Below are positions 11,980-44,787 of a stretch of 46,232 bases of DNA, piece by piece. Positions within the stretch are counted from its first letter, which is position 1. The number at the start of each line of letters is the position of its first letter. A model generated the notes under the pieces. The model saw nothing but the letters and a program-made list of their open reading frames with translations, had not been told where the DNA came from and ran no database searches. Source of the DNA: a virus; the IMG/VR virus record IMGVR_UViG_3300049927_000099, positions 1 through 46,232 of that record; one strand, 5' to 3'. A program made the translations under genes and the position numbers.

Positions 11980-12377
11980 TGGCCGCCCGGATCCAGCGCC
12001 GCCGCACGAAGGGATGGCGCGCCCCCGCAGGCGCCGTGTACGTCGGCCGGGGCACCATCTGGGGCAACCCCTGCACGCAGGTCCGCTACCCCGCCCTGGA
12101 CGGCTCCGAGTGGGAGCACGAGGGTCGCCTCGGCAAGACGTCGGGCGAGACTCACGCGTTCGTTCACCCTGACAGGTCCGTGACGTGGCACCTGGTGCAG
12201 GACGCGACCGGCGAGCAGGCCGTGGCCATGTACCGGCGTTGGCTCGACCGGCGATCCGATCTGGTGGACGCCGCCCGCCGGGAGCTGGCAGGCCGGGACC
12301 TCATGTGCTGGTGCACCGTCCGGGATGCGTGCCACGCAGACGTGCTGCTGCTGGTCGCCGCTGGGGGTGCCGTCTGA
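11979..12377 (+). CDS. DUF4326 family protein
   Basis: 132 residues. The hallmark pattern is present: Arg-Arg-Arg-Thr-Lys-Gly-Trp-Arg at the start, Val-Tyr-Val-Gly-Arg-Gly-Thr-Ile-Trp-Gly-Asn-Pro near residues 20-31, and near the end Leu-Met-Cys-Trp-Cys followed by Cys-His-Ala-Asp-Val-Leu-Leu. DUF4326 proteins occur in many phages and actinobacteria; the conserved Cys/His set suggests a metal site, but no activity is established to my knowledge. Overlaps both neighbours by one base. Confidence 0.8.
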   Translation: MAARIQRRRTKGWRAPAGAVYVGRGTIWGNPCTQVRYPALDGSEWEHEGRLGKTSGETHAFVHPDRSVTWHLVQDATGEQAVAMYRRWLDRRSDLVDAARRELAGRDLMCWCTVRDACHADVLLLVAAGGAV

Positions 12378-13054
12378 TGGCCGTCGAGCGCACGCCCGTG
12401 GACACCAGCCCCGCCGGCATCCGCTACGGCTGGACCCTCCGCACCCTCGACACCCTCGCCCGCTCCGTCGTCACCGGCAACCGCGCCTGGTGGCCCGCAG
12501 GCGACCGCGAAGACCTCCACGCCGCCGCCTGGCACGGCATCGTCGAACACCTCTACGCCTGCGATACCGAGCCGCGGCGCAGCGAGCTCATGGAAGCCGG
12601 ACGACAAGCCCTCGTCCGAGACGTGAAGGACACCATGCGCCACCACGGCGCCCGCCGCGACGGCACCAACAACGGCGCCAAGCACGCCATGTACTGGGCA
12701 TGGGCCGGCCGCACCACCGGCAGCCCCGAGACCGGCATCGTCGAGCGGATCGCCCTGGACCAGATCCTGCGCACCCTCACCCCCGGCCAGCTCGCCGCCA
12801 TCCACGCACTCGCGGCGACCGGCGACTACGCCGAAGCCGCCCGCATCACCGGCAGCACCACGAGCCTGAGGTCCCAGCTCATGAACGGGCGCCGCCGGTT
12901 CCGGGCCCTGTGGCACGAAGGCGAAACCCCCTCGAAGCCGTGGGGATGCGACCGGCGGGCCGGCTCCACAGCCGACGAACTCAGCAGCGGCGAATCAGCC
13001 CTGAACCGGATGCGGCGACGCGCTCGCGCCCAGTCGACAGGGGAAGCGGCATGA
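12377..13054 (+). CDS. Sigma-70-like DNA-binding protein
   Basis: 225 residues. Residues 20-65 look like sigma region 2 (Leu-Ala-Arg-Ser-Val-Val-Thr-Gly-Asn-Arg, then Asp-Arg-Glu-Asp-Leu and Ala-Ala-Trp-His-Gly-Ile-Val). Residues 118-170 look like region 4, with a helix-turn-helix around Gly-Asp-Tyr-Ala-Glu-Ala-Ala-Arg-Ile-Thr-Gly. A basic tail with Pro-Ser-Lys-Pro-Trp-Gly follows. Such proteins occur in Streptomyces phages and plasmids and could direct middle or late transcription. The match is weak, so a sigma-like regulator is a family-level guess. Confidence 0.55.
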   Translation: MAVERTPVDTSPAGIRYGWTLRTLDTLARSVVTGNRAWWPAGDREDLHAAAWHGIVEHLYACDTEPRRSELMEAGRQALVRDVKDTMRHHGARRDGTNNGAKHAMYWAWAGRTTGSPETGIVERIALDQILRTLTPGQLAAIHALAATGDYAEAARITGSTTSLRSQLMNGRRRFRALWHEGETPSKPWGCDRRAGSTADELSSGESALNRMRRRARAQSTGEAA

Positions 13055-13356
13055 CGGCCACCGAGCAGTGGGGCCTGGTCGTCGACGAGGTGAAGCTCAA
13101 CGCCGTCGCTGTCGCCGCCGACTGGTGGGCGCCCTACGCGGCCCGCTTCGAAGCCAGCGGCCAGGCACGGATCCTGGGCATCTCCGTGCCCGGCGCGGTC
13201 CTGGAGATCGGCCCCCTCGACCGTGAGGCCGCCGAATTCATGGTCGAGCACATGGTCGAGCACGGCGTCCACCGCACGATCTTGACGATCCGGAAGTGGA
13301 CCAGCGAGCCGAAGCCCTGGGGCAAGCCGCGCGCCGCACGGGCGGTGACGCCATGA
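13051..13356 (+). CDS. Hypothetical protein
   Basis: 101 residues, ATG overlapping the previous stop. Contains Asp-Trp-Trp-Ala-Pro-Tyr near residue 25 and a repeated Met-Val-Glu-His pair near 64-71; the fold is probably alpha/beta with no metal site. It lies between the sigma-like and WhiB-like genes and may be part of the same regulatory group. Confidence 0.5.
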   Translation: MTATEQWGLVVDEVKLNAVAVAADWWAPYAARFEASGQARILGISVPGAVLEIGPLDREAAEFMVEHMVEHGVHRTILTIRKWTSEPKPWGKPRAARAVTP

Positions 13357-13937
13357 CCACCGCGATCCCCGACTTCGTCCGCACCATCACCACCCAAACC
13401 CCCTGCGCGAAGAACCCCAACCGCTGGCACTCCAAAAACGACACCGACCTCGAATACGCCCGCCGCCGCTGCGCCATCTGCCCCCACCAAATCGCCTGCC
13501 TCGACTGGGCCATGGAGCACCGCAACGAGGTCGGCATGTGGGGCGGCCTCACCCGCCGGCAACGCGCCAACCGCCGCGGCGACACCCCCGACACCGAAGA
13601 ACACGAAGACCGCCAGGAAGCACCCGCCCGCCCCAAGTGCCCCTGCGGCCGGACCCTCACCACCAACGACAACCGGGTCTGCTACCTCCACCGGGCCGGG
13701 GTACCGCTCCTCAGCCCCCTCCTCATCGCCACCCTCACCGCAGCCCTGGACGAGCCGACGCACGCCGTCCTCGCGGGCCGCCTCGGGATCACCCCGGACG
13801 CTGCGGTCGGCCGGCTGCGGGCCATCTACCGGCGGCTTGGGGTGAACGGCTTGTACCCGTCGCGGCGTCGGCCGGCAGCGATCGAGGCGGCGCGTGCGGC
13901 TGGGCTGCTCCCGGTCGAGCAGGGGGCAGCGGCGTGA
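13353..13937 (+). CDS. WhiB-family iron-sulfur transcription factor with extra C-terminal domain
   Basis: 194 residues. The four cluster ligands are Cys18, Cys40, Cys43 and Cys49, followed by the family Gly-Met-Trp-Gly-Gly turn and a basic Arg-Arg-Gln-Arg stretch. Wbl proteins bind a [4Fe-4S] cluster and usually act with the primary sigma factor; several actinophages carry one. This one is about twice the common length: residues 85-115 add a Cys-Pro-Cys-Gly ... Cys-Tyr-Leu-His putative zinc site, and residues 115-185 a helix-turn-helix-like region. It may reprogram host transcription or development. Confidence 0.85.
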   Translation: MTTAIPDFVRTITTQTPCAKNPNRWHSKNDTDLEYARRRCAICPHQIACLDWAMEHRNEVGMWGGLTRRQRANRRGDTPDTEEHEDRQEAPARPKCPCGRTLTTNDNRVCYLHRAGVPLLSPLLIATLTAALDEPTHAVLAGRLGITPDAAVGRLRAIYRRLGVNGLYPSRRRPAAIEAARAAGLLPVEQGAAA

Positions 13938-14221
13938 GCGGCGCGAAGTCCCCGCGTGGGGAGCAGCCGGGCCGTCCGGGCGTGCGGTGGGAGACGGAGC
14001 TCGTGTCGTCGGGCGAGGTCGTGTGCGACCAGGACGACGAGCCGACGACGGCGGGGCCGGACTTCAACGTGTCGATCCCGTACCGCGCGAGCAGGGCTGT
14101 GCGGCGGCGTGCGGCACGAGAAGCCCGCCGGACCACCTCGGCCCCGTCCGGAACCCCGCGAGGCCCGCAGGCGGGCAGCAGCGGCCTCAACCCCAGCCAG
14201 TCGAAGGAGCAGCACCGATGA
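13934..14221 (+). CDS. Hypothetical basic protein
   Basis: 95 residues from GTG 13934 (GTGA overlap). A short acidic middle part is followed by an Arg-rich helix (Arg-Ala-Val-Arg-Arg-Arg-Ala-Ala-Arg-Glu-Ala-Arg-Arg) and a Ser/Pro/Gly tail. Probably disordered and possibly nucleic-acid binding. No family recognised. Confidence 0.45.
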   Translation: MSGAKSPRGEQPGRPGVRWETELVSSGEVVCDQDDEPTTAGPDFNVSIPYRASRAVRRRAAREARRTTSAPSGTPRGPQAGSSGLNPSQSKEQHR

Positions 14222-14565
14222 GCGACGACACCCCGACCACCGACCACGCCGACGCCCTCCGCGAAGTCCAAGGATGGATGGCCCTCGACCTACACCAAGC
14301 CCTCGGACACCCCGTCAACCCCACCGCCACCAACCAGGGCCACCCGTCCTGGGGCGACTGGTGGGCCTCGCTCGTCGCCGACGTCCGCCGCACGGCCCCG
14401 CCCGCCGCACGCCCCGGCACCTGCGGCCACCGCAGCGCCGAAGGCCACCCCTGCGGCCAACCGCCCGGACACCTCGGCTTCCACCGCATCGTCCGCTGCG
14501 ACGGCCACGACTGGACCTCATGGGTCGGCGAACCGCCCACCTCCGCGAAGGAGCAGCGCCCGTGA
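14218..14565 (+). CDS. Hypothetical protein with Cys/His cluster
   Basis: 115 residues, ATG overlapping the previous stop, with a GGAG ribosome binding site. The C-terminal half has Cys-Gly-His, Cys-Gly-Gln-Pro-Pro-Gly-His, His and Cys-Asp-Gly-His, a compact set of likely zinc ligands; an identical style of motif is frequent in Streptomyces small proteins. Function unknown. Confidence 0.5.
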   Translation: MSDDTPTTDHADALREVQGWMALDLHQALGHPVNPTATNQGHPSWGDWWASLVADVRRTAPPAARPGTCGHRSAEGHPCGQPPGHLGFHRIVRCDGHDWTSWVGEPPTSAKEQRP

Positions 14566-14663
14566 GCCGTTACCGCACCCGCCCCCACCACTGGCTACTC
14601 ACCGCCATCGGCGTAGCCCTCGTGATCCTCACCGCATGGCAACTCGGAGGAACCGCACGATGA
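14562..14663 (+). CDS. 33-residue membrane microprotein
   Basis: GTG 14562 overlaps the previous TGA and the TGA overlaps the next ATG. A basic N-terminus (Arg-Tyr-Arg-Thr-Arg) is followed by a Leu/Ala/Ile/Val helix at residues 12-28. The perfect fit into the overlap chain argues that it is translated. Function unknown. Confidence 0.45.
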   Translation: MSRYRTRPHHWLLTAIGVALVILTAWQLGGTAR

Positions 14664-15127
14664 AAAACCGCCAACCCACCCCCGGCACACCCCTCACCGC
14701 CCGCGAACTTCAAGTCCTCGCCGGCCTCGCACGCGGCAAAGACAACACGGTCATCGGCCAGGACCTCGGCCTGAAACGCCTCACCATCAAAACCCACATC
14801 GCCCGCATCAGCCGCAAAGCCCAAGCCGGACACACCAGCGGCATCATCGGCCACGCCTACCGCACCGGGCTGCTCCGTGGTCTGGCCCCCGAACCACGAC
14901 CACCCGTCTACCTCACCGGCCGCGAACGGCAGGTACTCGACGGCATGGCCCGCGGACAGTCCAACGCCGAGATCGGGCGGGAACTCTTCCTCGCCGAAGA
15001 GACGATCAAGAGCCACGCCCAACGCCTCTTCCGCAAACTCCAAGCCCACGGCCGCACCCACGCCGTGGCCTTGGGCTACCAGCACGGGTACCTCAAGGCG
15101 CCCGCCGAGACGGCAGGCAGACCGTGA
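14660..15127 (+). CDS. Tandem LuxR/GerE helix-turn-helix protein
   Basis: 155 residues containing two GerE-type DNA-binding domains: residues 10-70 (Leu-Thr-Ala-Arg-Glu-Leu-Gln-Val-Leu ... Ile-Lys-Thr-His) and 83-145 (Leu-Thr-Gly-Arg-Glu-Arg-Gln-Val-Leu ... Ile-Lys-Ser-His). No receiver or ligand-binding domain is present. LuxR domains normally dimerise to bind palindromes; a tandem pair could bind DNA as a monomer. It is the third host-style regulator in this stretch. Confidence 0.8.
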   Translation: MKNRQPTPGTPLTARELQVLAGLARGKDNTVIGQDLGLKRLTIKTHIARISRKAQAGHTSGIIGHAYRTGLLRGLAPEPRPPVYLTGRERQVLDGMARGQSNAEIGRELFLAEETIKSHAQRLFRKLQAHGRTHAVALGYQHGYLKAPAETAGRP

Positions 15128-37312: not shown

Positions 37313-37603
37313 TTGGACGCCACCACCGTCGGCAGCATCCTCGCGGGCGTGGGCGTGCTGGCCGGAGCGGTGGTGGCGTACCTCGGCAAGCGCGGCGAGT
37401 CCGCAACGCAACGCTTCAACAGCGTGACCGACCAAGTCCAGGAAGAACGTGACGGGCTGCGGCTCCAAGTCGCCGCGAAGGACACGCAGCTCGTCGCGAA
37501 GGACGTGCAGCTGATGGAGCTGCACCAACTGCGGCTCACCGACCAAGTGGAGATCGCCCGGCTCCGCGTCCGCATCATCGAACTAGGAGGAGGGACCCCG
37601 TGA
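37313..37603 (+). CDS. Membrane-anchored coiled-coil protein in lysis module
   Basis: 96 residues from TTG 37313, chosen because AGGGGG lies a good distance upstream and no ATG/GTG fits. Residues 7-24 form a membrane helix (Ile-Leu-Ala-Gly-Val-Gly-Val-Leu-Ala-Gly), followed by a long Gln/Lys/Leu/Val heptad coiled coil. The topology resembles lysis-accessory or spanin-like proteins, but actinophage lysis proteins vary and the role is not certain. Overlaps the next gene by four bases. Confidence 0.55.
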   Translation: MDATTVGSILAGVGVLAGAVVAYLGKRGESATQRFNSVTDQVQEERDGLRLQVAAKDTQLVAKDVQLMELHQLRLTDQVEIARLRVRIIELGGGTP

Positions 37604-38262
37604 CCCGCGCTGAGCGTCTCCTTGCACCGCAGTGGCGCCGCATCGCCCTGGTGTGCTCGATCCTCGCCCTCGCGGGCCTGGGCATGATCCTGTGGGCGCG
37701 CGTCGACGCCGGGCAGCAACGCGCGGACCAGCGCTACGCCATGGCCACCGCCGAGGCTGACAAGCGCGGCACGGCCGTGAGCATCCTGACGACCGACGTG
37801 CGGGACTTGCGCGCGCAGGTGAAGGCGTCGGGTAAAACACCGGTGGCCCCGGACCCTGCGCAGGCGGTTGAGCACCTCCCGGACCGGTCGCAGGTTCCGG
37901 TGCCGATCCCCGGCCCGGCCGGTGAGCCCGGACAGCCTGGTGCTACCGGCCTGCCCGGGACCCCCGGGGCGACGGGCCCTGCGGGTGCGACCGGCCCGGC
38001 GGGTGCCTCCGGGGCGGACGGCCAGGCCGGGCCTGCGGGGCCTGCGGGCCCGGCTGGTGCTGCCGGGCAGGACGGCGCTCCGGGCAAAGACGGGCGGGAC
38101 GGGACGAACGGCCAGGACGGGCAGACATGCCCTACCGGGTACTCCCTCCAGCCCCCTCCGGGCGACCCCGACGCCCTCGAATGCCGGCGAGACACGACGC
38201 CCACCCCCACGCCTGCCCCGACGCAGCCGCCTGCGCTGGTCCCTGACCGCCGCCGGATTTGA
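37600..38262 (+). CDS. Membrane protein with collagen-like repeat
   Basis: 220 residues from GTG 37600. Residues 16-34 form a membrane helix, residues 40-75 a short coiled coil, and residues 105-174 are about 23 uninterrupted Gly-X-Y triplets (Gly-Pro-Ala, Gly-Ala-Thr, Gly-Gln-Asp). A Pro/Thr-rich end has two Cys (Cys-Pro-Thr-Gly-Tyr ... Leu-Glu-Cys). Such a protein should trimerise as a rod projecting from a membrane. Its place behind the holin suggests lysis or envelope interaction; a virion role is also possible. Confidence 0.7.
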   Translation: MTRAERLLAPQWRRIALVCSILALAGLGMILWARVDAGQQRADQRYAMATAEADKRGTAVSILTTDVRDLRAQVKASGKTPVAPDPAQAVEHLPDRSQVPVPIPGPAGEPGQPGATGLPGTPGATGPAGATGPAGASGADGQAGPAGPAGPAGAAGQDGAPGKDGRDGTNGQDGQTCPTGYSLQPPPGDPDALECRRDTTPTPTPAPTQPPALVPDRRRI

Positions 38263-38332
38263 GGAGTACTGATCGGAGCCTGCGTGATGCCGCCGCCGAT
38301 GTCCCTGGCCTGCTGACCGCGGGCATGGAGAA

Positions 38333-38368
38333 GGCCCCCGCTGCGTGGAGCCCGGCGCAGCGGGGGCC
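38333..38368. terminator. Strong hairpin terminator between convergent modules
   Basis: GGCCCCCGCTGCG (38333-38345) pairs perfectly with 38356-38368 over a 10-base loop, a 13-bp stem. It lies between the last late gene on the plus strand and the end of the minus-strand genes, so it probably stops transcription from both sides. Confidence 0.8.
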
Positions 38369-38383
38369 TCTCAACGTCTGACG

Positions 38384-38563
38384 CTACGCCTGCTCGCGCC
38401 CCTCTGGCGAGGCGGCGGTCTTGACCGTGGCGAGGCCCTCCGCTGCCTTCTGCGCGGCGCCGGACACTTCGCGCACCCCCTCCACTAGGGCCTGCATGCA
38501 GGCGGCCGGTACGTCTGCGGTTGTCCTGGTGGGGACTGGCGGGAAGGTTCGTGTGTCGCTCAT
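38384..38563 (-). CDS. Small hypothetical protein
   Basis: 59 residues from the ATG at 38563, preceded by GAGAGGA; a start 48 bases further up is less likely. One Cys; a Val-Glu-Gly-Val-Arg-Glu-Val-Ser-Gly-Ala-Ala-Gln helix suggests an amphipathic segment. It is the last gene of the minus-strand cluster, beyond the hairpin at 38695-38734. Function unknown. Confidence 0.45.
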   Translation of the reverse strand: MSDTRTFPPVPTRTTADVPAACMQALVEGVREVSGAAQKAAEGLATVKTAASPEGREQA

Positions 38564-38580
38564 GGGCCGAGTGTCCTCTC

Positions 38581-38661
38581 TCAGTGGCCGCAGCGTGGCC
38601 GGGTCCACCAACCGCAGGCGGCGCAGTAGGTGTTGTGGAGTGCGCGGATCAGGTGCCGCAT
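38581..38661 (-). CDS. 26-residue putative zinc microprotein
   Basis: ATG at 38661. The product has His-Asn-Thr-Tyr-Cys-Ala-Ala-Cys-Gly-Trp-Trp and ends Arg-Cys-Gly-His, giving a CxxC...CxH set, a motif I associate with tiny Streptomyces proteins. The ribosome binding site is weak (ACGAGA). Tentative. Confidence 0.3.
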   Translation of the reverse strand: MRHLIRALHNTYCAACGWWTRPRCGH

Positions 38662-38694
38662 GATGGTGATCTCGTCTCGCGTGTAGGGATGAGA

Positions 38695-38734
38695 CCGGGG
38701 CGGCCGACTGCTTGGAGGCGGGCGGCCGCCCCGG
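38695..38734 (-). terminator. Hairpin after transfer-like membrane operon
   Basis: CCGGGGCGGCCG (38695-38706) pairs with CGGCCGCCCCGG (38723-38734), a 12-bp stem with a 16-base loop, starting three bases after the stop of the 280-residue gene. It should terminate the minus-strand membrane-protein operon. Confidence 0.65.
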
Positions 38735-38737
38735 GGT

Positions 38738-39580
38738 CTACGGGCGGGCTTTGGTGACGGTCACGCGGGTGCGAGCGGGGTTGACCGGGTCGTCCACAGC
38801 CACCACCCGGTATCCCCCGATGACGCTCTCGGTGGGTGTAGTTGGGCGTGTAGCTGGGGCTGTAGTTGCGGGTGTAGTTGGGTTCTGACCTGCGGCAACT
38901 ACAACTACGGGCCGTTCCAGGGAAGGAGCCGGGGGGAGTGCCGCAACGTCGTCCCGGTGGACCCCGATGGTCGGCTTACGGCCGGGCGCCCGGACCTGCT
39001 TGACGGGCACCCCCAGCGCCTCGCACAGCGGGCGTACAGCGGCCGCGTCCCAGCCCTCCGACGGGTAGTCCACGGCGAGGGCCTCGGCGAGCGTCGCGAG
39101 GTGGACGTTGTGCCCCCCGCGGGTGAAGCCCTGGAGCAGCCCGAGGAAGAACCCCAGGGGAACATCTGGAAGAGCGGCCGGGGCGTCGTTATCGGGCGCC
39201 TCGATCTCCTGCGGTGCGTCAGTCTCGACCTCCGCCGGCTTCTTACCGGCGACCCGGTATGCGGCGATGACCCATGCCGCGGTGGCGACCCAAAGCAGCC
39301 AGCGGGCCGCACCGAGGATGCGCCCGGCGATGTGCAGGGGGATGCTCCCGAGGTGCCAGAGCAGCCAGCCCGCGATGAGGAGCATCGCCCACCGCATGAC
39401 GCTGTCCGCGGTGCCGCTGCTCTCCCCCAGCCACCTCGTGATGCCGCCGCGCCACTCCCCCGTACGGCGCCGGGTGGTGCCGATGGTGCGGCGGGTGAGC
39501 TGCCGGGCGAGGATCCCGGAGCCCTGGCAGATGCGGCGGGCGGCGGTGCGCAGCCACCCTGCGGTGGTGGGGGCGCTCAT
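38738..39580 (-). CDS. Membrane protein of Streptomyces mobile-element type
   Basis: 280 residues from ATG 39580, overlapping the upstream stop as ATGA. A basic N-terminus, hydrophobic segments at about residues 62-78 and 87-107 and a soluble C-terminal half. Residues 155-215 contain Leu-Ala-Glu-Ala-Leu, Trp-Asp-Ala-Ala-Ala-Val-Arg and Gly-Val-His-Arg-Asp-Asp-Val, a winged-helix-like module I recall from proteins next to conjugation genes in Streptomyces plasmids and integrative elements. A Thr/Pro/Ala linker lies near residue 240. Likely part of a DNA spread or transfer apparatus; exact function unknown. Confidence 0.6.
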   Translation of the reverse strand: MSAPTTAGWLRTAARRICQGSGILARQLTRRTIGTTRRRTGEWRGGITRWLGESSGTADSVMRWAMLLIAGWLLWHLGSIPLHIAGRILGAARWLLWVATAAWVIAAYRVAGKKPAEVETDAPQEIEAPDNDAPAALPDVPLGFFLGLLQGFTRGGHNVHLATLAEALAVDYPSEGWDAAAVRPLCEALGVPVKQVRAPGRKPTIGVHRDDVAALPPAPSLERPVVVVAAGQNPTTPATTAPATRPTTPTESVIGGYRVVAVDDPVNPARTRVTVTKARP

Positions 39581-40185
39581 GCTGCGGCCCCGTGGACGAT
39601 AGCGCCGACGAGCGTCGCACCGAGCTGGTTCGCGCTGGGCACGGCCATCTGACCGATGACCGCGAACACCCCGGTCGTGATCGCGAGGAGCGTTCCGCAC
39701 CACACGCCGTTGCGGAATTTGCCCTTGATGACCTTGCTGAGTTTCTTCCATGCGACGATGACCAGCAGCAAGGCGACGGTGACGATGAACGCGCCGTGGC
39801 TGTCGAGGGCGGGTGCTGCGCCCTGTGCGATGACGGCGGGGCTCTGCCCTGTGGCGTGCTCCATGACGGCGCCACCACCCGCGTTGCCGAGGGAGCGCAG
39901 CACCCCGGAGAACGTGCCGAGCAGGCCGGCGGGGCAGGCCACGCACAGCGACCCGAACATCAGCCCGGACGCGAACGGCACCAGCGCTTTGGGGTCGCGG
40001 GAGCGGCCGGCCGGGGCTGCTGCGGGCGCGCCTTTGCCCTTGCCGCGGGGGGCTGCTGCGGGGGCTGAGCCGCCGCCGCGCCACCACTGCCACAGCTCCC
40101 AGGCCAGGAGGAATACCCCGATGGCGAGGCCGCCGAGGGTGAGGGAGGTAGTGGGCTGCAGGAGCCCACCGGCGGCGGTCATCAT
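39577..40185 (-). CDS. Multi-pass membrane protein
   Basis: 202 residues starting Met-Met-Thr-Ala-Ala at 40185, overlapping the upstream stop. Four hydrophobic segments at roughly residues 15-32, 70-95, 125-145 and 158-190, with a Lys/Gly/Ala/Pro-rich loop near 42-65. Regular Gly and Ala spacing suggests tight helix packing, perhaps a pore. Conserved in mobile elements of Streptomyces as far as I recall; function unassigned. Confidence 0.55.
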   Translation of the reverse strand: MMTAAGGLLQPTTSLTLGGLAIGVFLLAWELWQWWRGGGSAPAAAPRGKGKGAPAAAPAGRSRDPKALVPFASGLMFGSLCVACPAGLLGTFSGVLRSLGNAGGGAVMEHATGQSPAVIAQGAAPALDSHGAFIVTVALLLVIVAWKKLSKVIKGKFRNGVWCGTLLAITTGVFAVIGQMAVPSANQLGATLVGAIVHGAAA

Positions 40186-40625
40186 GTGCGGACTCCGGTC
40201 ACGAGGTAGACGATGGTCAGGATGGGCAGGGCGGTGACGGCGCCGAGCACGGCGACCCACAGCAGGACCCGCGCACCGAAGGCGCGGATCTTGGGGGCCC
40301 ACCGCTTGGCATGAGCGGCCGCGCCGTAGACGTTGTCGGCGAACGCCACGATCCCGAGGGGCACGAGCGCGAGGACCCAGCCGCCCGCGAGGCTGGTCTC
40401 CGCTGCGCACTGGTGCACGGCGTGCGACCAGGCGGCGGTGAGGGGCAGGCCGAGGACGATCGCGGCCCCGTTGTAGCCGGGGCGCAGCCGCTCGAACCAC
40501 GACGGGCCGGCGTCGTTGGTGGCGTAGATGACGGTGCCTTGCAGGACCGGCGGGTCCTCGGTGCGCACGGCCGGCAGGAAGTTCGACGGCGGATACGACG
40601 GCGGCGGCGGGATCAGGTCAGGCAC
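40182..40625 (-). CDS. Membrane protein
   Basis: 147 residues from GTG 40625. The N-terminal 45 residues are Pro-rich and cytoplasmic. Hydrophobic stretches follow at about 53-68, 82-100 and 120-143. Overlaps the next gene (ATGATG/TGA). Same style as the other membrane proteins in this operon; no motif beyond the helices. Confidence 0.55.
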   Translation of the reverse strand: MPDLIPPPPSYPPSNFLPAVRTEDPPVLQGTVIYATNDAGPSWFERLRPGYNGAAIVLGLPLTAAWSHAVHQCAAETSLAGGWVLALVPLGIVAFADNVYGAAAHAKRWAPKIRAFGARVLLWVAVLGAVTALPILTIVYLVTGVRT

Positions 40626-40791
40626 GGATACCCCCCAGGACGACGGAGACGACGACGGCGGCGTAGGCGAAGGCGAACAGGCCGATACCGAAGCGGGCCA
40701 GCGCGCGGGCAGCCGGTCGGCCCTGGCAGACGATCGCCAGGACCAGCACCACGGTGCCGAGGACGGCGCAGGACAGGGCTGCGGGGATCAT
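40618..40791 (-). CDS. 57-residue membrane protein
   Basis: Starts Met-Ile-Pro-Ala-Ala-Leu at 40791 behind GAGGAG. Two hydrophobic helices (about residues 2-20 and 32-53) with a short basic loop, Gln-Gly-Arg-Pro-Ala-Ala-Arg. Its start overlaps the end of the SpdB-like gene by four bases, so it is translated with it. Function unknown. Confidence 0.55.
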   Translation of the reverse strand: MIPAALSCAVLGTVVLVLAIVCQGRPAARALARFGIGLFAFAYAAVVVSVVLGGIRA

Positions 40792-41663
40792 GAGGCGCTC
40801 CTCCGGAGGTCCCGGACGTAGCGGGCGACGGTCTCCGTCTTGGCGGCGGGGTCGGCGACCTTGCGGACGTACCGGAGGACGGCATCCGGATCGTGGATTC
40901 CGCAATCCGCAGCGGTCCGGACGGCATCCGCAATGCTCATAGGCCCGCCCTTGAGCGGCAGGACTGTGCCGTCCGGAAGATCCGGGGTGCTATCCGGACG
41001 GTCCGGATTGGCCTCCGGATTCTCCGGACGGACCGGATCGGTCTGCCCGAGCGCGGCAGCCTCAGCGTCGACGAGGCCCTTGGCGCGCAGGAGCTCCCGG
41101 CGGATGGGGATCATTGCGAGCTGCCCGCTGAGCGCACCGCGGCGCTTGTCGACCCACTGCTGTGTGCGGTCGTCGAGGGGGCGGGCGTGGAAGCGCATGA
41201 CGATCGTCCAGCTTCCCTTGGCGAGCCCGGACACGACCGCACCGACGGCGCCGATGATGGGCTGCCCGAAGAGGCTGCCGTGTGCGGCGACGGCGCCCAT
41301 GGCGATGAGGAGTGAGAGGTGTCCGGCGACGCGCGGGAGGGTGGCGCGGCTCTGGTCGTAGCGGGCCAGCCACTCGACGGCCATGCACAGGATCCAGGTG
41401 ACGTCGAACGCGACCGCTGCGCCGTACGCGGCCGGGGCGATGACGACGCGGGCGAGGAGGTCGCCGATGGATGCGGTGGACCAGATCACGGAGACGGTGA
41501 CGAGGAGGCCGGCGCCGGCGGTGACGGCGGACAACACGAGGCGGTCCCAGTCGCGGGGTGGGAGGGGCACCTCGACGTCGTAGCGGTCGAGGACCAATTC
41601 CTCTTCGCCGTCGACCTCGTGAGGGACGAGGCGAGACCGTCGGACGGTGCGGGTCTTCACCAC
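40788..41663 (-). CDS. SpdB-like plasmid spread membrane protein
   Basis: 291 residues from GTG 41663 (or 41660) behind GGAAGGAAG. Hydrophobic helices at about 43-62, 72-95, 112-130 and 134-152 include Trp-Ser-Thr-Ala-Ser-Ile-Gly-Asp-Leu-Leu and Phe-Asp-Val-Thr-Trp-Ile-Leu-Cys-Met-Ala. After them come Met-Arg-Phe-His-Ala-Arg-Pro-Leu-Asp-Asp and Gln-Gln-Trp-Val-Asp, a pattern I know from proteins annotated SpdB in Streptomyces conjugative plasmids, where they assist intramycelial plasmid spread. A Pro/Asp linker (TCCGGA-rich DNA) precedes a C-terminal helical domain. Role here by homology only. Confidence 0.65.
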   Translation of the reverse strand: MVKTRTVRRSRLVPHEVDGEEELVLDRYDVEVPLPPRDWDRLVLSAVTAGAGLLVTVSVIWSTASIGDLLARVVIAPAAYGAAVAFDVTWILCMAVEWLARYDQSRATLPRVAGHLSLLIAMGAVAAHGSLFGQPIIGAVGAVVSGLAKGSWTIVMRFHARPLDDRTQQWVDKRRGALSGQLAMIPIRRELLRAKGLVDAEAAALGQTDPVRPENPEANPDRPDSTPDLPDGTVLPLKGGPMSIADAVRTAADCGIHDPDAVLRYVRKVADPAAKTETVARYVRDLRRSAS

Positions 41664-41893
41664 TGGTCTTCCTTCCGGTGCTGGATGTACTGCTGGGCTG
41701 CCAGGGCGACGAGGACGCTGGCCGCGATGAGGCTTGTGTTGCGGAGGCGGCGGAGGATTCCGTCGCTCGCGAGGTACACGGCAGCTGCGGCGACGAGGGC
41801 GATCTCGGGTCGGATGAGGAGGAGTAGGAGGCCGGTGGTGGCCATGGCGCAGCCGGTCGCGGCGAGGATGAGGGCGGCGGTGCGGGTGGACAC
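41657..41893 (-). CDS. Small two-helix membrane protein
   Basis: 78 residues from GTG 41893, end overlapping the SpdB-like start. Hydrophobic segments at about residues 6-26 and 30-45, with a third near 53-67; tail Gln-His-Arg-Lys-Glu-Asp. Such small partners commonly precede SpdB-type genes. Function unknown. Confidence 0.55.
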   Translation of the reverse strand: MSTRTAALILAATGCAMATTGLLLLLIRPEIALVAAAAVYLASDGILRRLRNTSLIAASVLVALAAQQYIQHRKEDQW

Positions 41894-41897
41894 GGGG

Positions 41898-42050
41898 TCA
41901 GCTCTCTTCGAATCGGGCGGTGGCGCAGTCCGCGCAGAGCTTCATGACCTCGTGGTCGTCACGCTCGGGGTAGAGGGCCTCGGTGAACGGGTCGTTCATC
42001 TTCTGGACGTCCGGCTTGCGCTCGCCGCACTCCTCGCACTTCTTCGCCAT
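41898..42050 (-). CDS. 50-residue zinc-ribbon protein
   Basis: ATG 42050 behind GAAAGGA. Cys-Glu-Glu-Cys-Gly-Glu-Arg-Lys at the start and Cys-Ala-Asp-Cys near the end make a four-Cys zinc site around a Lys-Met-Asn-Asp-Pro-Phe helix. I associate this kind of protein with Streptomyces plasmid-like operons; it may bind nucleic acid or a partner protein. Confidence 0.55.
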   Translation of the reverse strand: MAKKCEECGERKPDVQKMNDPFTEALYPERDDHEVMKLCADCATARFEES

Positions 42051-42077
42051 GACGGGCGTCCTTTCAGGGGTTGGGCA

Positions 42078-42115
42078 CCGCGCTCCGGGCCGTGGGGGAA
42101 CACCCCGGAGCGCGG
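42078..42115 (-). terminator. Structured spacer hairpin B
   Basis: CCGCGCTCCGGG (42078-42089) pairs with CCCGGAGCGCGG (42104-42115), a 12-bp stem, 14-base loop, right after the stop of the 53-residue gene and before the ribosome binding site of the 50-residue gene. It shares stem base and loop sequence with hairpin A at 42320-42357. Partial terminator or mRNA processing/stability element. Confidence 0.55.
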
Positions 42116-42126
42116 CGGTCGGGGGG

Positions 42127-42288
42127 TTAGCGGTCGCCGGTCGGGTTGGGGGTGTCGTCGGTGAGGCGCCCCCAGATTTCGGCCTGCTGATCGGGCGGCA
42201 CGGTGGCCATGACCTCCTGCATCCGATCGAGCGCGCCCGGGTTGCTGGAGTCCTCGATGAGGCGGGCGACGATCTCGTTGGTATCCAC
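42127..42288 (-). CDS. 53-residue hypothetical protein
   Basis: GTG 42288 behind GAGGAG. Acidic and helical: Asn-Glu-Ile-Val-Ala-Arg-Leu-Ile-Glu-Asp, Leu-Asp-Arg-Met-Gln-Glu-Val-Met. No Cys, no membrane helix. Function unknown; lies between hairpins A and B. Confidence 0.5.
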   Translation of the reverse strand: MDTNEIVARLIEDSSNPGALDRMQEVMATVPPDQQAEIWGRLTDDTPNPTGDR

Positions 42289-42319
42289 GGGCTGCTCCTC
42301 AGTGGGTCTGGGGGTTGAT

Positions 42320-42357
42320 CGCCGTGCCCGGGTCGTGGGGGCGACCCGGGCACGGCG
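42320..42357 (-). terminator. Structured spacer hairpin A
   Basis: CGCCGTGCCCGGGTCG (42320-42335) pairs perfectly with 42342-42357, a 16-bp stem with a 6-base loop, five bases after the stop of the 65-residue gene. Together with hairpin B it seems to be a duplicated structured spacer. Strong enough to end some transcripts and so grade expression along the operon. Confidence 0.65.
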
Positions 42358-42362
42358 GTCTG

Positions 42363-42560
42363 TTAGCTGCCGAAGCGGCTGCGGTCGCGGTCTTCCCACG
42401 CCTGGCCCTGGCGGGCGGTGGCGGTGGCGCTGCGGCGGTGGCCCTTGCGGCGCTTGGCGGAGTCGGCGGCTTCCTTGCGGGCGGCGCGCTGCCCGCGGGT
42501 TTCACGGCCGGAGTAGTCGCTGTGCGCCGGGCCTCTGCTGAACAGGTCGCGGAAGGCCAT
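42363..42560 (-). CDS. 65-residue basic protein
   Basis: ATG 42560. Highly basic (Lys-Arg-Arg-Lys-Gly-His-Arg-Arg) with Ala/Glu/Gln helices and no hydrophobic core, so probably DNA-binding or disordered. Start overlaps the stop of the upstream 58-residue gene. Similar short proteins occur in Streptomyces plasmids. Function unknown. Confidence 0.5.
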   Translation of the reverse strand: MAFRDLFSRGPAHSDYSGRETRGQRAARKEAADSAKRRKGHRRSATATARQGQAWEDRDRSRFGS

Positions 42561-42736
42561 CACTCGCCGCCGCTCTCGCTGGGCTGCCAGAGGTGCGCGG
42601 GGTGGTCGCCGACGTGGATGCCGGGCCGGTAGTCCTTCGCGCAGGCTTCGACGGTGGCGGGTTCGGTTGCGGCGGGCTGGTTCCGTAACGGCCTGGGGAT
42701 GGGCGTGGGCCTGTCGCGGCCCGTACGATCTGACAT
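42560..42736 (-). CDS. 58-residue hypothetical protein, first gene of minus operon
   Basis: ATG 42736 behind GGGAGAG; stop overlaps the next ATG (TGATG). Basic, Pro-rich first half (Asp-Arg-Pro-Thr-Pro-Ile-Pro-Arg-Pro) and a second half with Tyr-Arg-Pro-Gly-Ile-His-Val-Gly-Asp-His. Good ribosome binding site and coupling make it likely real. Function unknown. Confidence 0.5.
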   Translation of the reverse strand: MSDRTGRDRPTPIPRPLRNQPAATEPATVEACAKDYRPGIHVGDHPAHLWQPSESGGE

Positions 42737-42777
42737 GGATCTCTCCCGTGTGGCTTAGCGGCTTCGGGTGGATCTGA

Positions 42778-42822
42778 CGGCCCGGCCTGAGTGGCAACTC
42801 ATATGGCCGGGCCGCCTTTTTG
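42778..42822 (+). terminator. Classical intrinsic terminator on plus strand
   Basis: CGGCCCGGCC (42778-42787) pairs with 42805-42814; inside, TGAGT (42788-42792) pairs with ACTCA (42797-42801). A CC then TTTTTG run follows, the only T-tract terminator in the window. It ends plus-strand transcription between the divergent 42736 and 42906 genes, where no protein gene lies upstream on that strand. Confidence 0.65.
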
Positions 42823-42859
42823 TTGTTGATCATTGGCAGCGTGGCTACCACCTGACTGA

Positions 42860-42890
42860 CTGTAGACTACTCTACAGCTACCGGGTAGAG
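42860..42890. promoter_or_regulatory. Palindromic operator in divergent regulatory region
   Basis: CTGTAGACTACTCTACAG (42860-42877) is a perfect 7-bp inverted repeat with a 4-base spacer. A further half-site GTAGAG at 42885-42890 also pairs with CTCTAC at 42870-42875, giving three half-sites. It lies 16 bases before the HTH gene and between two divergent operons, fitting an autoregulatory operator. TAGACT at 42863 could be a -10 element; no clear -35 partner is seen. Confidence 0.6.
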
Positions 42891-42905
42891 CCGCGCTCCC
42901 GAGCG

Positions 42906-43271
42906 ATGGGAGTGCACGTGGCGGACGGGACCGACGAGGAGGTGCAGCGGGTGCTCGACTCCATCGACGCGCTCGGGCAGACAGGCGATCCGGCCGAACG
43001 GCTTAAGCGCCTGACCGCCCTACTCAAGCGCTGGCCGGGCCTTCACCAAGAGGTGCGCGCCATGCGGCAGCAGGCGGCCAACGAGCTTCATGACGGTGGC
43101 CTGTCCTACGAGGAGATTGGGAAGCTGATCGACGTGAGCCTCAGCCGCGCCCGGCACATCGCCAAGGGGATCACCAACCCCGTCAAGCAGAAGGCCAAGG
43201 AGCAGCAGCGTGACGCAGCAGCCAACGCAGGGGCCGATGATCCACCCGGGCATCCAGACGGGGGGCAGTGA
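42906..43271 (+). CDS. HTH transcriptional regulator
   Basis: 121 residues from ATG 42906; the frame is open 138 bases further up but would cross the operator and terminator. Residues 1-60 are helical (Val-Gln-Arg-Val-Leu-Asp-Ser-Ile-Asp-Ala-Leu). Residues 68-95 are a sigma-region-4-like helix-turn-helix: Leu-Ser-Tyr-Glu-Glu-Ile-Gly-Lys-Leu-Ile-Asp-Val-Ser. It overlaps the GIY-YIG gene start and probably controls this operon and the divergent membrane operon through the palindrome just upstream. Confidence 0.65.
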   Translation: MGVHVADGTDEEVQRVLDSIDALGQTGDPAERLKRLTALLKRWPGLHQEVRAMRQQAANELHDGGLSYEEIGKLIDVSLSRARHIAKGITNPVKQKAKEQQRDAAANAGADDPPGHPDGGQ

Positions 43272-43615
43272 AGAGACCGCTGTCTACCGCCTGTTCGACC
43301 AGGCCGGGCAGCTCCTCTATGTCGGCATGGGGCGGAACCCCATGAACCGCTGGTCCTCTCACGCGGATCAGCATGCATGGTGGCCGCAGGTGACCGCGTT
43401 CGCAGTGGTGTGGCACCCGACGCGCAGCGACGCAGCGGCCGAAGAGCGCTCCGCGCTCCGCGCTCCGCAATGAATCGCCGTTGCACAATATCCACGGAAC
43501 GCCACAGTGGGCGGGGATCGTCTCCCAGCACGTGAAGGCCGGACTCGCCAGTCGGCAGGGGGAGCGCACCGACCTGGTGAAGTCACCAACCGACGAGGAG
43601 AGCAGCGATGGATGA
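43210..43615 (+). pseudogene. GIY-YIG endonuclease broken by 7-bp repeat expansion
   Basis: The N-terminal part (Val-Tyr-Arg-Leu-Phe-Asp, then Leu-Leu-Tyr-Val-Gly-Met-Gly and Trp-Ser-Ser-His) is a GIY-YIG nuclease domain. Translation stops at 43471 after Ala-Leu-Arg-Ala-Pro-Gln (87 residues). Removing one of three GCTCCGC copies (43448-43468) joins Ala-Leu-Arg to Asn-Glu-Ser-Pro-Leu-His-Asn-Ile-His-Gly, the expected continuation, running to a TGA at 43613-43615 that overlaps the next gene's ATG; the product would be 132 residues. So the gene is inactivated, or switched, by slippage. A sequence error is the alternative. Confidence 0.75.
43448..43468 (+). repeat. Triple GCTCCGC tandem repeat
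   Basis: Three exact copies of the 7-mer GCTCCGC. Two copies keep the GIY-YIG frame; three shift it. A unit length not divisible by three makes this a possible slippage switch. Confidence 0.85.
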
Positions 43616-43919
43616 CCTGATCGTGTTCCTGCGGGCCCGGTTCGACGGAGACGAGTGGACCGCGCGCGTGGTCAAGGACGCCGCCCTCAAGCGCACGCAC
43701 TACCGGGCATCGATGGTGGCGGATGCTGACTGCGACCTGCGGGAGGTCGAGGCGAAGCGGGAGCTGGTCAACCGCTTCGAGGCCATGGCGGCCGGAGTGC
43801 TGGTGGTGACGGGTGTGGAGCCGATCCTGTCCGAATACCGTCGCGTGATCCTGCCCGCTCTCGTCGCCAAGTATCAGGATCACCCGGACTACCGGCCCGA
43901 GTGGGCGCCCACCGCCTGA
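43608..43919 (+). CDS. DUF6221-like protein
   Basis: 103 residues, ATG overlapping the restored end of the GIY-YIG frame. Starts Met-Asp-Asp-Leu-Ile-Val-Phe-Leu-Arg-Ala-Arg-Phe-Asp and ends Leu-Ala-Val/Ala ... Tyr-Gln-Asp-His-Pro-Asp-Tyr-Arg-Pro-Glu-Trp, with Leu-Arg-Glu-Val-Glu-Ala-Lys-Arg in between: the frame of DUF6221 proteins common in Streptomyces and their phages. The central variable region is short. Role unknown. Confidence 0.7.
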   Translation: MDDLIVFLRARFDGDEWTARVVKDAALKRTHYRASMVADADCDLREVEAKRELVNRFEAMAAGVLVVTGVEPILSEYRRVILPALVAKYQDHPDYRPEWAPTA

Positions 43920-43935
43920 CCCTCACGCACCCAAG

Positions 43936-43966
43936 CAGGCTCCCGCTGTCACCCGGTGGGGGCCTG
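43936..43966 (+). terminator. Hairpin after DUF6221-like gene
   Basis: CAGGCTCCC (43936-43944) pairs with GGGGGCCTG (43958-43966), nine pairs with one G-T, 13-base loop, then TTCGTG. Probably ends the small accessory operon before the lipoprotein gene. Confidence 0.5.
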
Positions 43967-44042
43967 TTCGTGCTGCACCCCTGCCCGTTGTCCGTGCGGT
44001 GCCTTACCGTGGCGGCCACTCGATGGGTGTGGGGGTTTCGTG

Positions 44043-44519
44043 ATGCGGTGTGCTGTATCGGTGTGCGCGGTGGCGGCCGGGGTGCTCGTGCTGGCGGGAT
44101 GCGGGGATGGCGGGAAGGACACGCCGTCGGCTACCCCGTCCGTGGCGGTGACGACGCCGGCCCCGCCGGCCGCAGTGAAGCTGTCGACGAAGTGGACGCC
44201 GAAGCTGGACGCCTTGGACGCGGAGGGTGGGACGGCGGCGTGCCAGGCGGCGGGGAGTTCGGCGTGCGCGTCGGCGATCTCGGCGACGCTGGTGCAGCTG
44301 AATGCGTTCATGGACGATGTGAACGCGGGCGGTCCGGCGAAGTATCTGGCGTCGGTGGCGCAGGTGCAGAAGATGGTGACGGCGGCGCAGGGGTATTCGT
44401 CGGCGGGGTGTGAGGGGGGTGCGGCGTCGTCGTGTTACGGGGATGCGATGGTGGTGACGGTGGGGGTCCCGACGCTGGGGATGACGTTGACGACGGATGA
44501 GATCAAGGCTGGGGGCTGA
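44043..44519 (+). CDS. Lipoprotein
   Basis: 158 residues from ATG 44043 (GTG 44040 adjacent). A signal peptide ends in the lipobox Leu-Ala-Gly-Cys with Cys20 as the lipidated residue, so the protein should sit on the outer face of the membrane. A Thr/Pro/Ala linker to residue 40 precedes a globular part with four Cys (likely two disulfides: Cys-Gln-Ala-Ala-Gly-Ser-Ser-Ala-Cys, then Cys-Glu ... Cys-Tyr). Its own terminator hairpins flank it, suggesting independent, perhaps lysogenic, expression. Phage lipoproteins often block superinfection; here that is a hypothesis. Confidence 0.75.
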   Translation: MRCAVSVCAVAAGVLVLAGCGDGGKDTPSATPSVAVTTPAPPAAVKLSTKWTPKLDALDAEGGTAACQAAGSSACASAISATLVQLNAFMDDVNAGGPAKYLASVAQVQKMVTAAQGYSSAGCEGGAASSCYGDAMVVTVGVPTLGMTLTTDEIKAGG

Positions 44520-44528
44520 ACAGTGGTG

Positions 44529-44565
44529 CGCCCCCGTCTGGCCCTTCGTGGGCCGGGCGGGGGCG
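44529..44565. terminator. Strong bidirectional hairpin terminator
   Basis: A 16-bp stem (44529-44544 with 44550-44565, two G-T pairs) and a TTCGT loop, ten bases after the lipoprotein stop and 18 before the stop of the convergent minus-strand gene. One of the strongest hairpins in the window; followed by GTTTCGTC. Confidence 0.8.
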
Positions 44566-44583
44566 GTTTCGTCATGCCCGGGG

Positions 44584-44787
44584 TCAGGCGCGCGTCTCGA
44601 CCGTGATGCCCTCGGCTTCGCCTTGCTGCGCCCACTGGCCGACGGTGCGGTACCCGGCGTTGTCGAGAGTCTCGTCGCGGTCGCCGTCGAGGGGCAGGAC
44701 GTTGGCGGAGTCGGGGGGGGCTGCGCCTTGGTCGTCGATGTCGAGGACGTGGATGGTGTCGCCGAAGTCGTAGGCGATGAGCGGCAT
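44584..44787 (-). CDS. Small acidic hypothetical protein
   Basis: 67 residues from ATG 44787 with GAGGAG upstream. Strongly acidic: Tyr-Asp-Phe-Gly-Asp-Thr-Ile-His-Val-Leu-Asp-Ile-Asp-Asp. Probably a small beta-containing protein; last gene of the right-hand minus operon. No family recognised. Confidence 0.5.
   Translation of the reverse strand: MPLIAYDFGDTIHVLDIDDQGAAPPDSANVLPLDGDRDETLDNAGYRTVGQWAQQGEAEGITVETRA

What the first reader, a model, noticed from the sequence alone, without database searches (positions are those of the whole stretch)
38738..42736. Plasmid-type spread/transfer membrane operon in a phage genome
Ten minus-strand genes (four or five multi-pass membrane proteins, including an SpdB-like one, led by tiny basic or zinc proteins) resemble the spread modules of Streptomyces conjugative plasmids. 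They sit beside a complete virion module. No TraB/FtsK-type translocase is in the window. Either the module works with a translocase outside the window or the host's, or it has a new role in phage DNA movement along hyphae or in envelope modification. Streptomyces plasmid-phages such as pZL12 are a precedent for mixed lifestyles.
Basis: partly seen in the sequence, partly recalled or inferred. Interest (0 to 1): 0.68.

Follow-up and report, generated by a model that had tools for sequence, protein, structure and literature searches.

The report
Phage module with plasmid-spread protein
A phage carries a small set of membrane-protein genes built around a relative of SpdB, the protein that helps Streptomyces plasmids spread through a colony, but without the DNA-pumping motor that plasmids keep beside it; many other Streptomyces-type phages carry the same kind of set.

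Summary
In detail: ten overlapping or close minus-strand genes (38738-42736), six encoding membrane proteins, beside a virion and lysis module. No FtsK/TraB gene is in the 46,232-base record.

The 291-aa protein (40788-41663) belongs to a family whose profile detects SpdB of pIJ101 and five other plasmid SpdB proteins, though only through plasmid and AICE intermediates. The family occurs in two arrangements that never overlapped in my sample. In plasmids, AICEs and a few phage contigs it sits beside an FtsK/TraB-type translocase. In most phages and prophages, the window included, other membrane proteins follow it, ending in a predicted membrane-anchored winged helix, with no motor nearby. On a quick tree 64 of 65 motor-less members form one group; close relatives show purifying selection.

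Best reading: a Spd-derived, motor-less DNA-membrane module of temperate actinophages, probably holding or moving phage DNA at hyphal cross-walls with a host or co-resident motor. The family relation is shown; the function is inferred. The other membrane proteins match no known Spd family. New variant of a known kind.

The parts
40788..41663 (-). SpdB-like protein, 291 aa (P0005): N-terminal beta hairpin, four membrane helices, long helix, C-terminal three-helix domain
   Evidence: PHROG 35187 E 1e-122; family HMM detects pIJ101 SpdB; AlphaFold2 mean pLDDT 83.7
38738..39580 (-). membrane-anchored winged-helix protein, 280 aa (g71), last gene of the operon
   Evidence: PHROG 24067; AlphaFold2 helices 57-79 and 82-112, winged helix 142-213 at pLDDT about 90; structural matches of that part are mostly winged helices, Z up to 6.6
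39577..40185 (-). three-segment membrane protein, 202 aa (g72)
   Evidence: PHROG 16379 E 2.8e-49; 15 members including the window among the loci then held
40182..40625 (-). two-segment membrane protein, 147 aa (g73)
   Evidence: PHROG 15316; homologues in L020 and L098
40618..40791 (-). 57-aa two-segment membrane protein (g74)
   Evidence: no sequence homologue in the loci, but small two-segment proteins hold this place in many relatives
41657..41893 (-). 78-aa membrane protein (g76)
   Evidence: no homologue found
41898..42050 (-). 50-aa protein with two CxxC pairs, putative zinc ribbon (g77)
   Evidence: sequence; one homologue, in L016
42127..42288 (-). 53-aa acidic protein (g78)
   Evidence: no homologue found
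42363..42560 (-). 65-aa basic protein, pI 11.6 (g79)
   Evidence: homologues upstream of the SpdB-like gene in L003, L020, L022
42560..42736 (-). 58-aa protein, first gene (g80)
   Evidence: weak matches in L018 and L021
42918..43271 (+). divergent small helix-turn-helix-like protein, 117 aa (g81), probable regulator
   Evidence: homologue divergent and upstream in 27 of 60 motor-less relatives; the related Kromp gene is annotated RNA polymerase sigma factor
38695..38734 (-). hairpin just after the last stop codon, probable operon end
   Evidence: I23; -34 kcal/mol, z -5.3
42317..42360 (-). very stable hairpin between g79 and g78
   Evidence: I18; -40.2 kcal/mol, z -8.8

Best explanation
The operon is a Spd-derived DNA-membrane module that temperate actinophages took over from plasmid or AICE transfer loci and kept without the TraB/FtsK motor. 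Shown: the central protein is a member of the SpdB superfamily; the motor is absent from the record; the arrangement is conserved in many phages and its SpdB-like gene is under purifying selection. Inferred: the SpdB-like protein forms an oligomeric four-helix membrane platform whose cytosolic helices bind DNA; the last protein anchors a winged-helix DNA-binding domain, possibly related to the C-terminal domain of AICE translocases, to the membrane; small basic proteins help. Together they would hold circular phage DNA at the membrane of hyphal cross-walls, so that it is shared with neighbouring compartments or kept through septation. The pumping would be done by a host FtsK-type protein or by TraB of a co-resident AICE or plasmid.
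For: A family HMM built without any pIJ101-type SpdB finds 6 of 6 plasmid SpdB proteins at E 7.9e-8 to 6.1e-6 among 1,606 proteins; the best reversed decoy is 0.0013. Profile-profile comparison: 96% probability, E 3.8e-9 over 135 columns; reversed control 0.034. Context, first set: 20 of 55 loci have an FtsK/TraB-like gene on the same strand within 6 kb, 27 of 55 have g71 and/or g72 homologues instead, 8 have neither, none has both. New viral set: 38 of 47 motor-less with g71, 5 of 47 with an adjacent translocase, 4 with neither. PF01580 passes its cut-off for three of the neighbouring translocases and for the one in G088. Phage contig G088 holds an overlapping SpdB-like and translocase pair among head, tail, lysis and replication genes. 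Tree: 64 of 65 motor-less rows in one group, motor-linked rows basal when rooted on SpdB, 2 changes needed. A divergent gene lies within 2 kb upstream in 55 of 60 motor-less loci; pIJ101 has a divergent GntR gene before its tra-spd genes. g71 family against C-termini of one group of AICE translocases: hhalign E 1.4e-5 with 8 sequences, 2.3e-4 with 9; reversed and 8 shuffled controls 0.44-1. Published: pock formation depends on 3-6 spd genes, and SpdB2 of pSVH1 is an oligomerising membrane protein that binds DNA and interacts with TraB (passages of PMC4170104).
Against: The phage-only profile does not reach SpdB (hhalign E 0.026; no SpdB hit), and P0005 against pIJ101 SpdB by BLASTP gives E 0.85: the link runs through plasmid and AICE members. 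Bias corrections on the SpdB hits are large (13.9-27.2 bits). g71-g74 and g76 match no known Spd protein. The translocase resemblance of g71 was found with one of four translocase groups only, and winged helices are common. No DNA binding, transfer or localisation is tested. No fold of P0005 was recognised in the PDB.
Confidence: 0.45

Rival explanations
1. Transfer interference: the phage expresses a motor-less SpdB-like complex that inserts into, or competes with, the Spd-TraB machinery of incoming AICEs and plasmids, protecting the lysogen from their invasion or from loss of DNA.
For: The SpdB core is shared with motor-linked members (33-row alignment with 15 invariant columns over both contexts); AICEs co-reside with such prophages, in tandem in 2 of the 7 first viral records. 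A motor-less partner of a translocase is a natural poison (inference).
Against: The motor-less lineage is large and keeps its own set of partner proteins, more than a decoy needs. PADLOC was not searched.
Confidence: 0.2
2. Prophage or episome stability: the module tethers phage DNA to the membrane for partition through septation and sporulation, with no transfer between compartments.
For: Two predicted candidate DNA-binding domains on membrane anchors. spdA2 of pIJ101 and spdB2 of SLP2 are reported to affect plasmid stability (passages of PMC4170104). pSITFR-21c is a circular plasmid record with virion genes that carries the module.
Against: Kromp and TurkishDelight carry integrases, so an integrated prophage should not need it.
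Confidence: 0.2
3. Envelope, superinfection-exclusion or lysis-related membrane operon whose SpdB likeness is only ancestral.
For: Six membrane proteins; the operon lies just after the lysis genes in the window.
Against: PHROGs gives no lysis, virion or exclusion family for any of the ten at E below 0.01; a separate endolysin and holin exist; predicted DNA-binding folds; in 6 relatives the operon lies upstream of a terminase homologue.
Confidence: 0.12

Closest known systems
SpdB of Streptomyces plasmid pIJ101 and relatives (L014, L056-L060)
   Same: Profile homology over the membrane helices, including the D-W-E and A-K-x-W positions; same length as pIJ101 SpdB, 291 aa
   Different: pIJ101 spdB lies one gene from traB; the phage gene has no traB and different neighbours
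SpdB-like genes beside FtsK/TraB-type translocases in actinobacterial plasmids and AICEs (pADI95-16c, pFSYMDG01, Frankia and Streptomyces loci)
   Same: Same family, 29% identity to P0005 for both plasmid copies; small genes, often HTH-like or basic, upstream
   Different: They keep the motor; none has g71 or g72 homologues
Motor-less phage modules: Kromp gp82-85, TurkishDelight gp97-101, plasmid pSITFR-21c, many Streptomyces prophages
   Same: SpdB-like gene followed by membrane proteins and a g71-type protein
   Different: The middle genes vary; g73 and the leader genes of the window are found in few relatives
pZL12-type plasmid-phages (type named from recall; record NZ_CP109440.1)
   Same: A transfer module inside a phage-like replicon
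   Different: It has an FtsK-like gene and a DUF2637 protein, which the P0005 family HMM does not detect

Membership tests
SpdB family of pIJ101 type | Sequence relation to SpdB | tested here: met
   Full-family HMM E 1.3e-7 and hhalign E 3.8e-9; the phage-only profile alone does not reach it
SpdB family of pIJ101 type | Integral membrane protein with cytosolic C-terminal part | tested here: met
   Predicted only: four membrane helices, long helix, C-terminal three-helix domain
SpdB family of pIJ101 type | Required for pock formation or plasmid spread | not testable with these tools
   needs mating experiments
Streptomyces tra-spd transfer locus | FtsK/TraB-type translocase in the locus | tested here: not met
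   No PF01580 match in the record, no translocase HMM hit among window proteins
Streptomyces tra-spd transfer locus | clt site with translocase recognition repeats | not tested
   A general repeat search of 38200-44700 was made, but no clt model was used
Streptomyces tra-spd transfer locus | Divergent transcriptional regulator | tested here: inconclusive
   A divergent helix-turn-helix-like gene is present and conserved in part of the relatives; it has no PHROGs match and was not compared with KorA
DUF2637 proteins (SpdB2-like, recalled name) | Match to the Pfam family or to known members | tested here: not met
   No such Pfam match at E up to 1; the HMM does not detect the two DUF2637 proteins in L061 and L062
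Phage lysis or virion module | Membership in PHROGs lysis, head or tail families | tested here: not met
   Only unknown-function families for the ten proteins at E below 0.01; one head-protease match at E 0.12 for the 53-aa protein

The most novel reading that the evidence does not exclude
Temperate actinophages evolved a motor-less DNA-spreading complex from plasmid Spd-TraB machinery, keeping the SpdB membrane platform and a translocase-like DNA-reading winged helix on a membrane anchor while borrowing a motor, so that phage DNA can colonise a mycelium compartment by compartment without making virions.
Probability: 0.25. Interest if true: 0.85.

Novelty: new variant of a known kind. Interest (0 to 1): 0.6.

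Why it matters
What Spd proteins do is open: the field's statement is that no predicted Spd protein resembles a functionally characterised protein and that spd genes differ widely between plasmids (passages of PMC4170104). A family of 97 distinct sequences (5 of them the SpdB outgroup) with two natural arrangements, with and without motor, gives conserved residues and genetically simple test systems, since Kromp is recorded from S. lividans, the host of pIJ101. If the motor-less form moves DNA, phages have a route through hyphae that needs no virion.

Tried and rejected
Pfam and NCBIfam scans of all ten proteins gave nothing above a cut-off. Direct BLASTP of P0005 with pIJ101 SpdB was not significant, and the phage-only profile failed as well; I report the link as transitive. 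Foldseek of both models against the PDB gave no match at E below 0.001. FtsK matches in two early prophage records (G003, G006) looked like phage translocases, but they belong to AICEs standing in tandem with the prophage, so I do not count them. PF01580 across 36 host genomes only showed that every one has several FtsK-type matches (6-26 each), which makes a borrowed motor possible and proves nothing; two loci (L022, L034) were not held. DUF2637 kinship was tested and not found. The g71 winged helix was compared with DUF3631 proteins (E 0.65) and with four translocase groups (one of four positive); I treat its kinship with translocase C-termini as suggestive. A promoter scan found nothing. 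An integrase was not searched for in the window by profile; no gene I called looks like one, and the first gene resembles one lying just after the integrase block in L066, so the record may lack that end. Rows dropped before the tree: L039 (split gene), L060 and L111 (truncated), seven duplicate loci (L073, L074, L077, L078, L080, L083, L086); L121 was labelled motor-linked by hand on a match below the cut-off (15.4 bits). The tree is the quick kind, with the main phage fork at 94 (not starred), and Kromp on a long branch outside it. Literature searches listed no paper that by title and abstract start deals with SpdB relatives in phages; the library lacks most subscription journals, and the pZL12 paper itself was not held (its title seen in a reference list).

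Full report
The window is a whole 46,232-base virus record. Gene calling by codon usage gives a phage genome with replication genes at the left, terminase, portal, head, tape measure and tail genes from 18.7 to 35.6 kb, and endolysin and holin at 36.0-37.3 kb. Ten minus-strand genes then run from 42736 down to 38738, with mostly overlapping ends. A stable hairpin follows the last stop codon and another lies between g79 and g78. A small helix-turn-helix-like gene (42918-43271) points the other way.

Curated libraries do not name these proteins. PHROGs places four of them in families of unknown function. tblastn of the 291-aa protein finds 5 phage records (SF3 and TurkishDelight twice each, Kromp once) and 3 plasmids. 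Two of the plasmids are small (pADI95-16c, 10.5 kb; pFSYMDG01, 12.4 kb) and encode a P-loop ATPase close downstream on the same strand. I then fetched 7 viral loci, 41 genome loci and 54 viral loci, 7 of them repeats.

SpdB kinship. An HMM of the family, made without any pIJ101-type SpdB, scores pIJ101 SpdB at E 1.3e-7 and the other five plasmid SpdB proteins at 7.9e-8 to 6.1e-6 in a set of 1,606 proteins. The next hits are at 0.00077 and above, the best reversed decoy at 0.0013. hhalign gives 96% probability and E 3.8e-9 over 135 columns. A profile of the 20 phage-type members alone fails (E 0.026), so the inference runs through plasmid and AICE members. The phage-only HMM does find those strongly (E 3.7e-36 and 1e-32 for L002 and L001).

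Two arrangements. In the first 55 loci including the window, 20 have an FtsK/TraB-like gene within 6 kb on the same strand, 27 have homologues of g71 and/or g72, 8 have neither (several cut by contig ends), none has both. Among 47 new viral loci, 38 have g71 (28 of them also g72) and no translocase, 5 have a translocase, 4 have neither. PF01580 is found anywhere in 7 of those 47 records: within about 4 kb of the SpdB-like gene in six, including the weak L121/G090 case, and far from it in G071. The six records with a neighbouring translocase each carry at least one of terminase, portal and tape measure matches. G088 is the clearest: the SpdB-like gene (14087-14983) overlaps a 587-aa FtsK-like gene (12327-14090) inside a phage with head, tail, lysis and replication genes, with no AICE integrase or primase match. 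PHROGs names that protein FtsK/SpoIIIE-like. So phages with the complete pair exist, and the window belongs to the motor-less majority.

History. On a tree of 105 rows rooted on five SpdB proteins, 64 of 65 motor-less rows share one fork (SH-aLRT 94) with 6 unassigned rows; Kromp lies outside on a long branch. Motor-linked rows are basal, and 2 changes explain the labels. This fits one main loss of the motor followed by spread among phages, but the support is moderate. dN/dS of 0.16-0.57 in 9 of 9 close pairs argues against decay. Kromp and TurkishDelight are annotated with integrase and immunity repressor, and pSITFR-21c is a circular plasmid with virion genes, so the annotated carriers I looked at whole or in large part are temperate or plasmid-like.

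Mechanism. AlphaFold2 gives the SpdB-like protein four membrane helices, a long helix and a C-terminal three-helix domain at pLDDT of 93-97. The last protein has two hydrophobic helices and a winged helix; structural neighbours of that part are mostly winged-helix domains at middling Z. Its family resembles the C-terminal domain of one group of AICE translocases (E 1.4e-5 and 2.3e-4, against 0.44-1 for reversed and shuffled controls), but not the other three groups. I therefore propose a membrane-anchored DNA-holding complex that has lost its own motor. Published work describes SpdB2 of pSVH1 as an oligomerising membrane protein that binds DNA and contacts TraB (passages of PMC4170104). Whether the phage module moves DNA, stabilises it, or blocks rival elements is open. 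I give 0.45 to the DNA-holding and spreading reading, and less to each rival.

Knowledge status. Plasmid-phages with transfer are known (pZL12, title seen), and I saw one such record with a full module next to virion genes. I found no paper describing SpdB relatives in phages or a motor-less version, within a library that lacks many journals. I file the finding as a new variant of a known kind.

Noticed in passing
L066 and L067 (records G003 and G006): Complete AICE-like elements (FtsK-type translocase, primase-polymerase, DUF3631-type protein, excisionase, integrase; names partly recalled from sequence look) stand directly beside prophages that carry the module, in 2 of the first 7 viral records; possible mobilisation in cis.
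   Followed up: partly
L062 (NZ_CP109440.1, 87.9 kb circular plasmid): A GntR regulator, DUF2637 protein and FtsK-like gene lie right beside terminase, coat and tail genes. Other plasmids of 86-102 kb match the same translocase and may be of the same kind.
   Followed up: no
L039: In Streptomyces viridochromogenes DSM 40736 both the SpdB-like gene and the translocase are split into pieces, an apparent decayed element.
   Followed up: no
L031: Unrelated genes stand where the partner genes should follow the SpdB-like gene in this Streptomyces indicus locus, as if cargo had replaced them.
   Followed up: no
window 37600-38262: Collagen-like repeat protein matched by PHROGs as collagen-like minor tail, next to the lysis genes.
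   Followed up: no
window 42317-42360: Almost perfect 16-pair hairpin inside the operon between two tiny genes, a candidate attenuator or RNA-processing site.
   Followed up: partly
record G071 (L102): A 96.9 kb viral contig holds two portal and two terminase matches and one distant FtsK-like gene, probably two prophages in one record.
   Followed up: no
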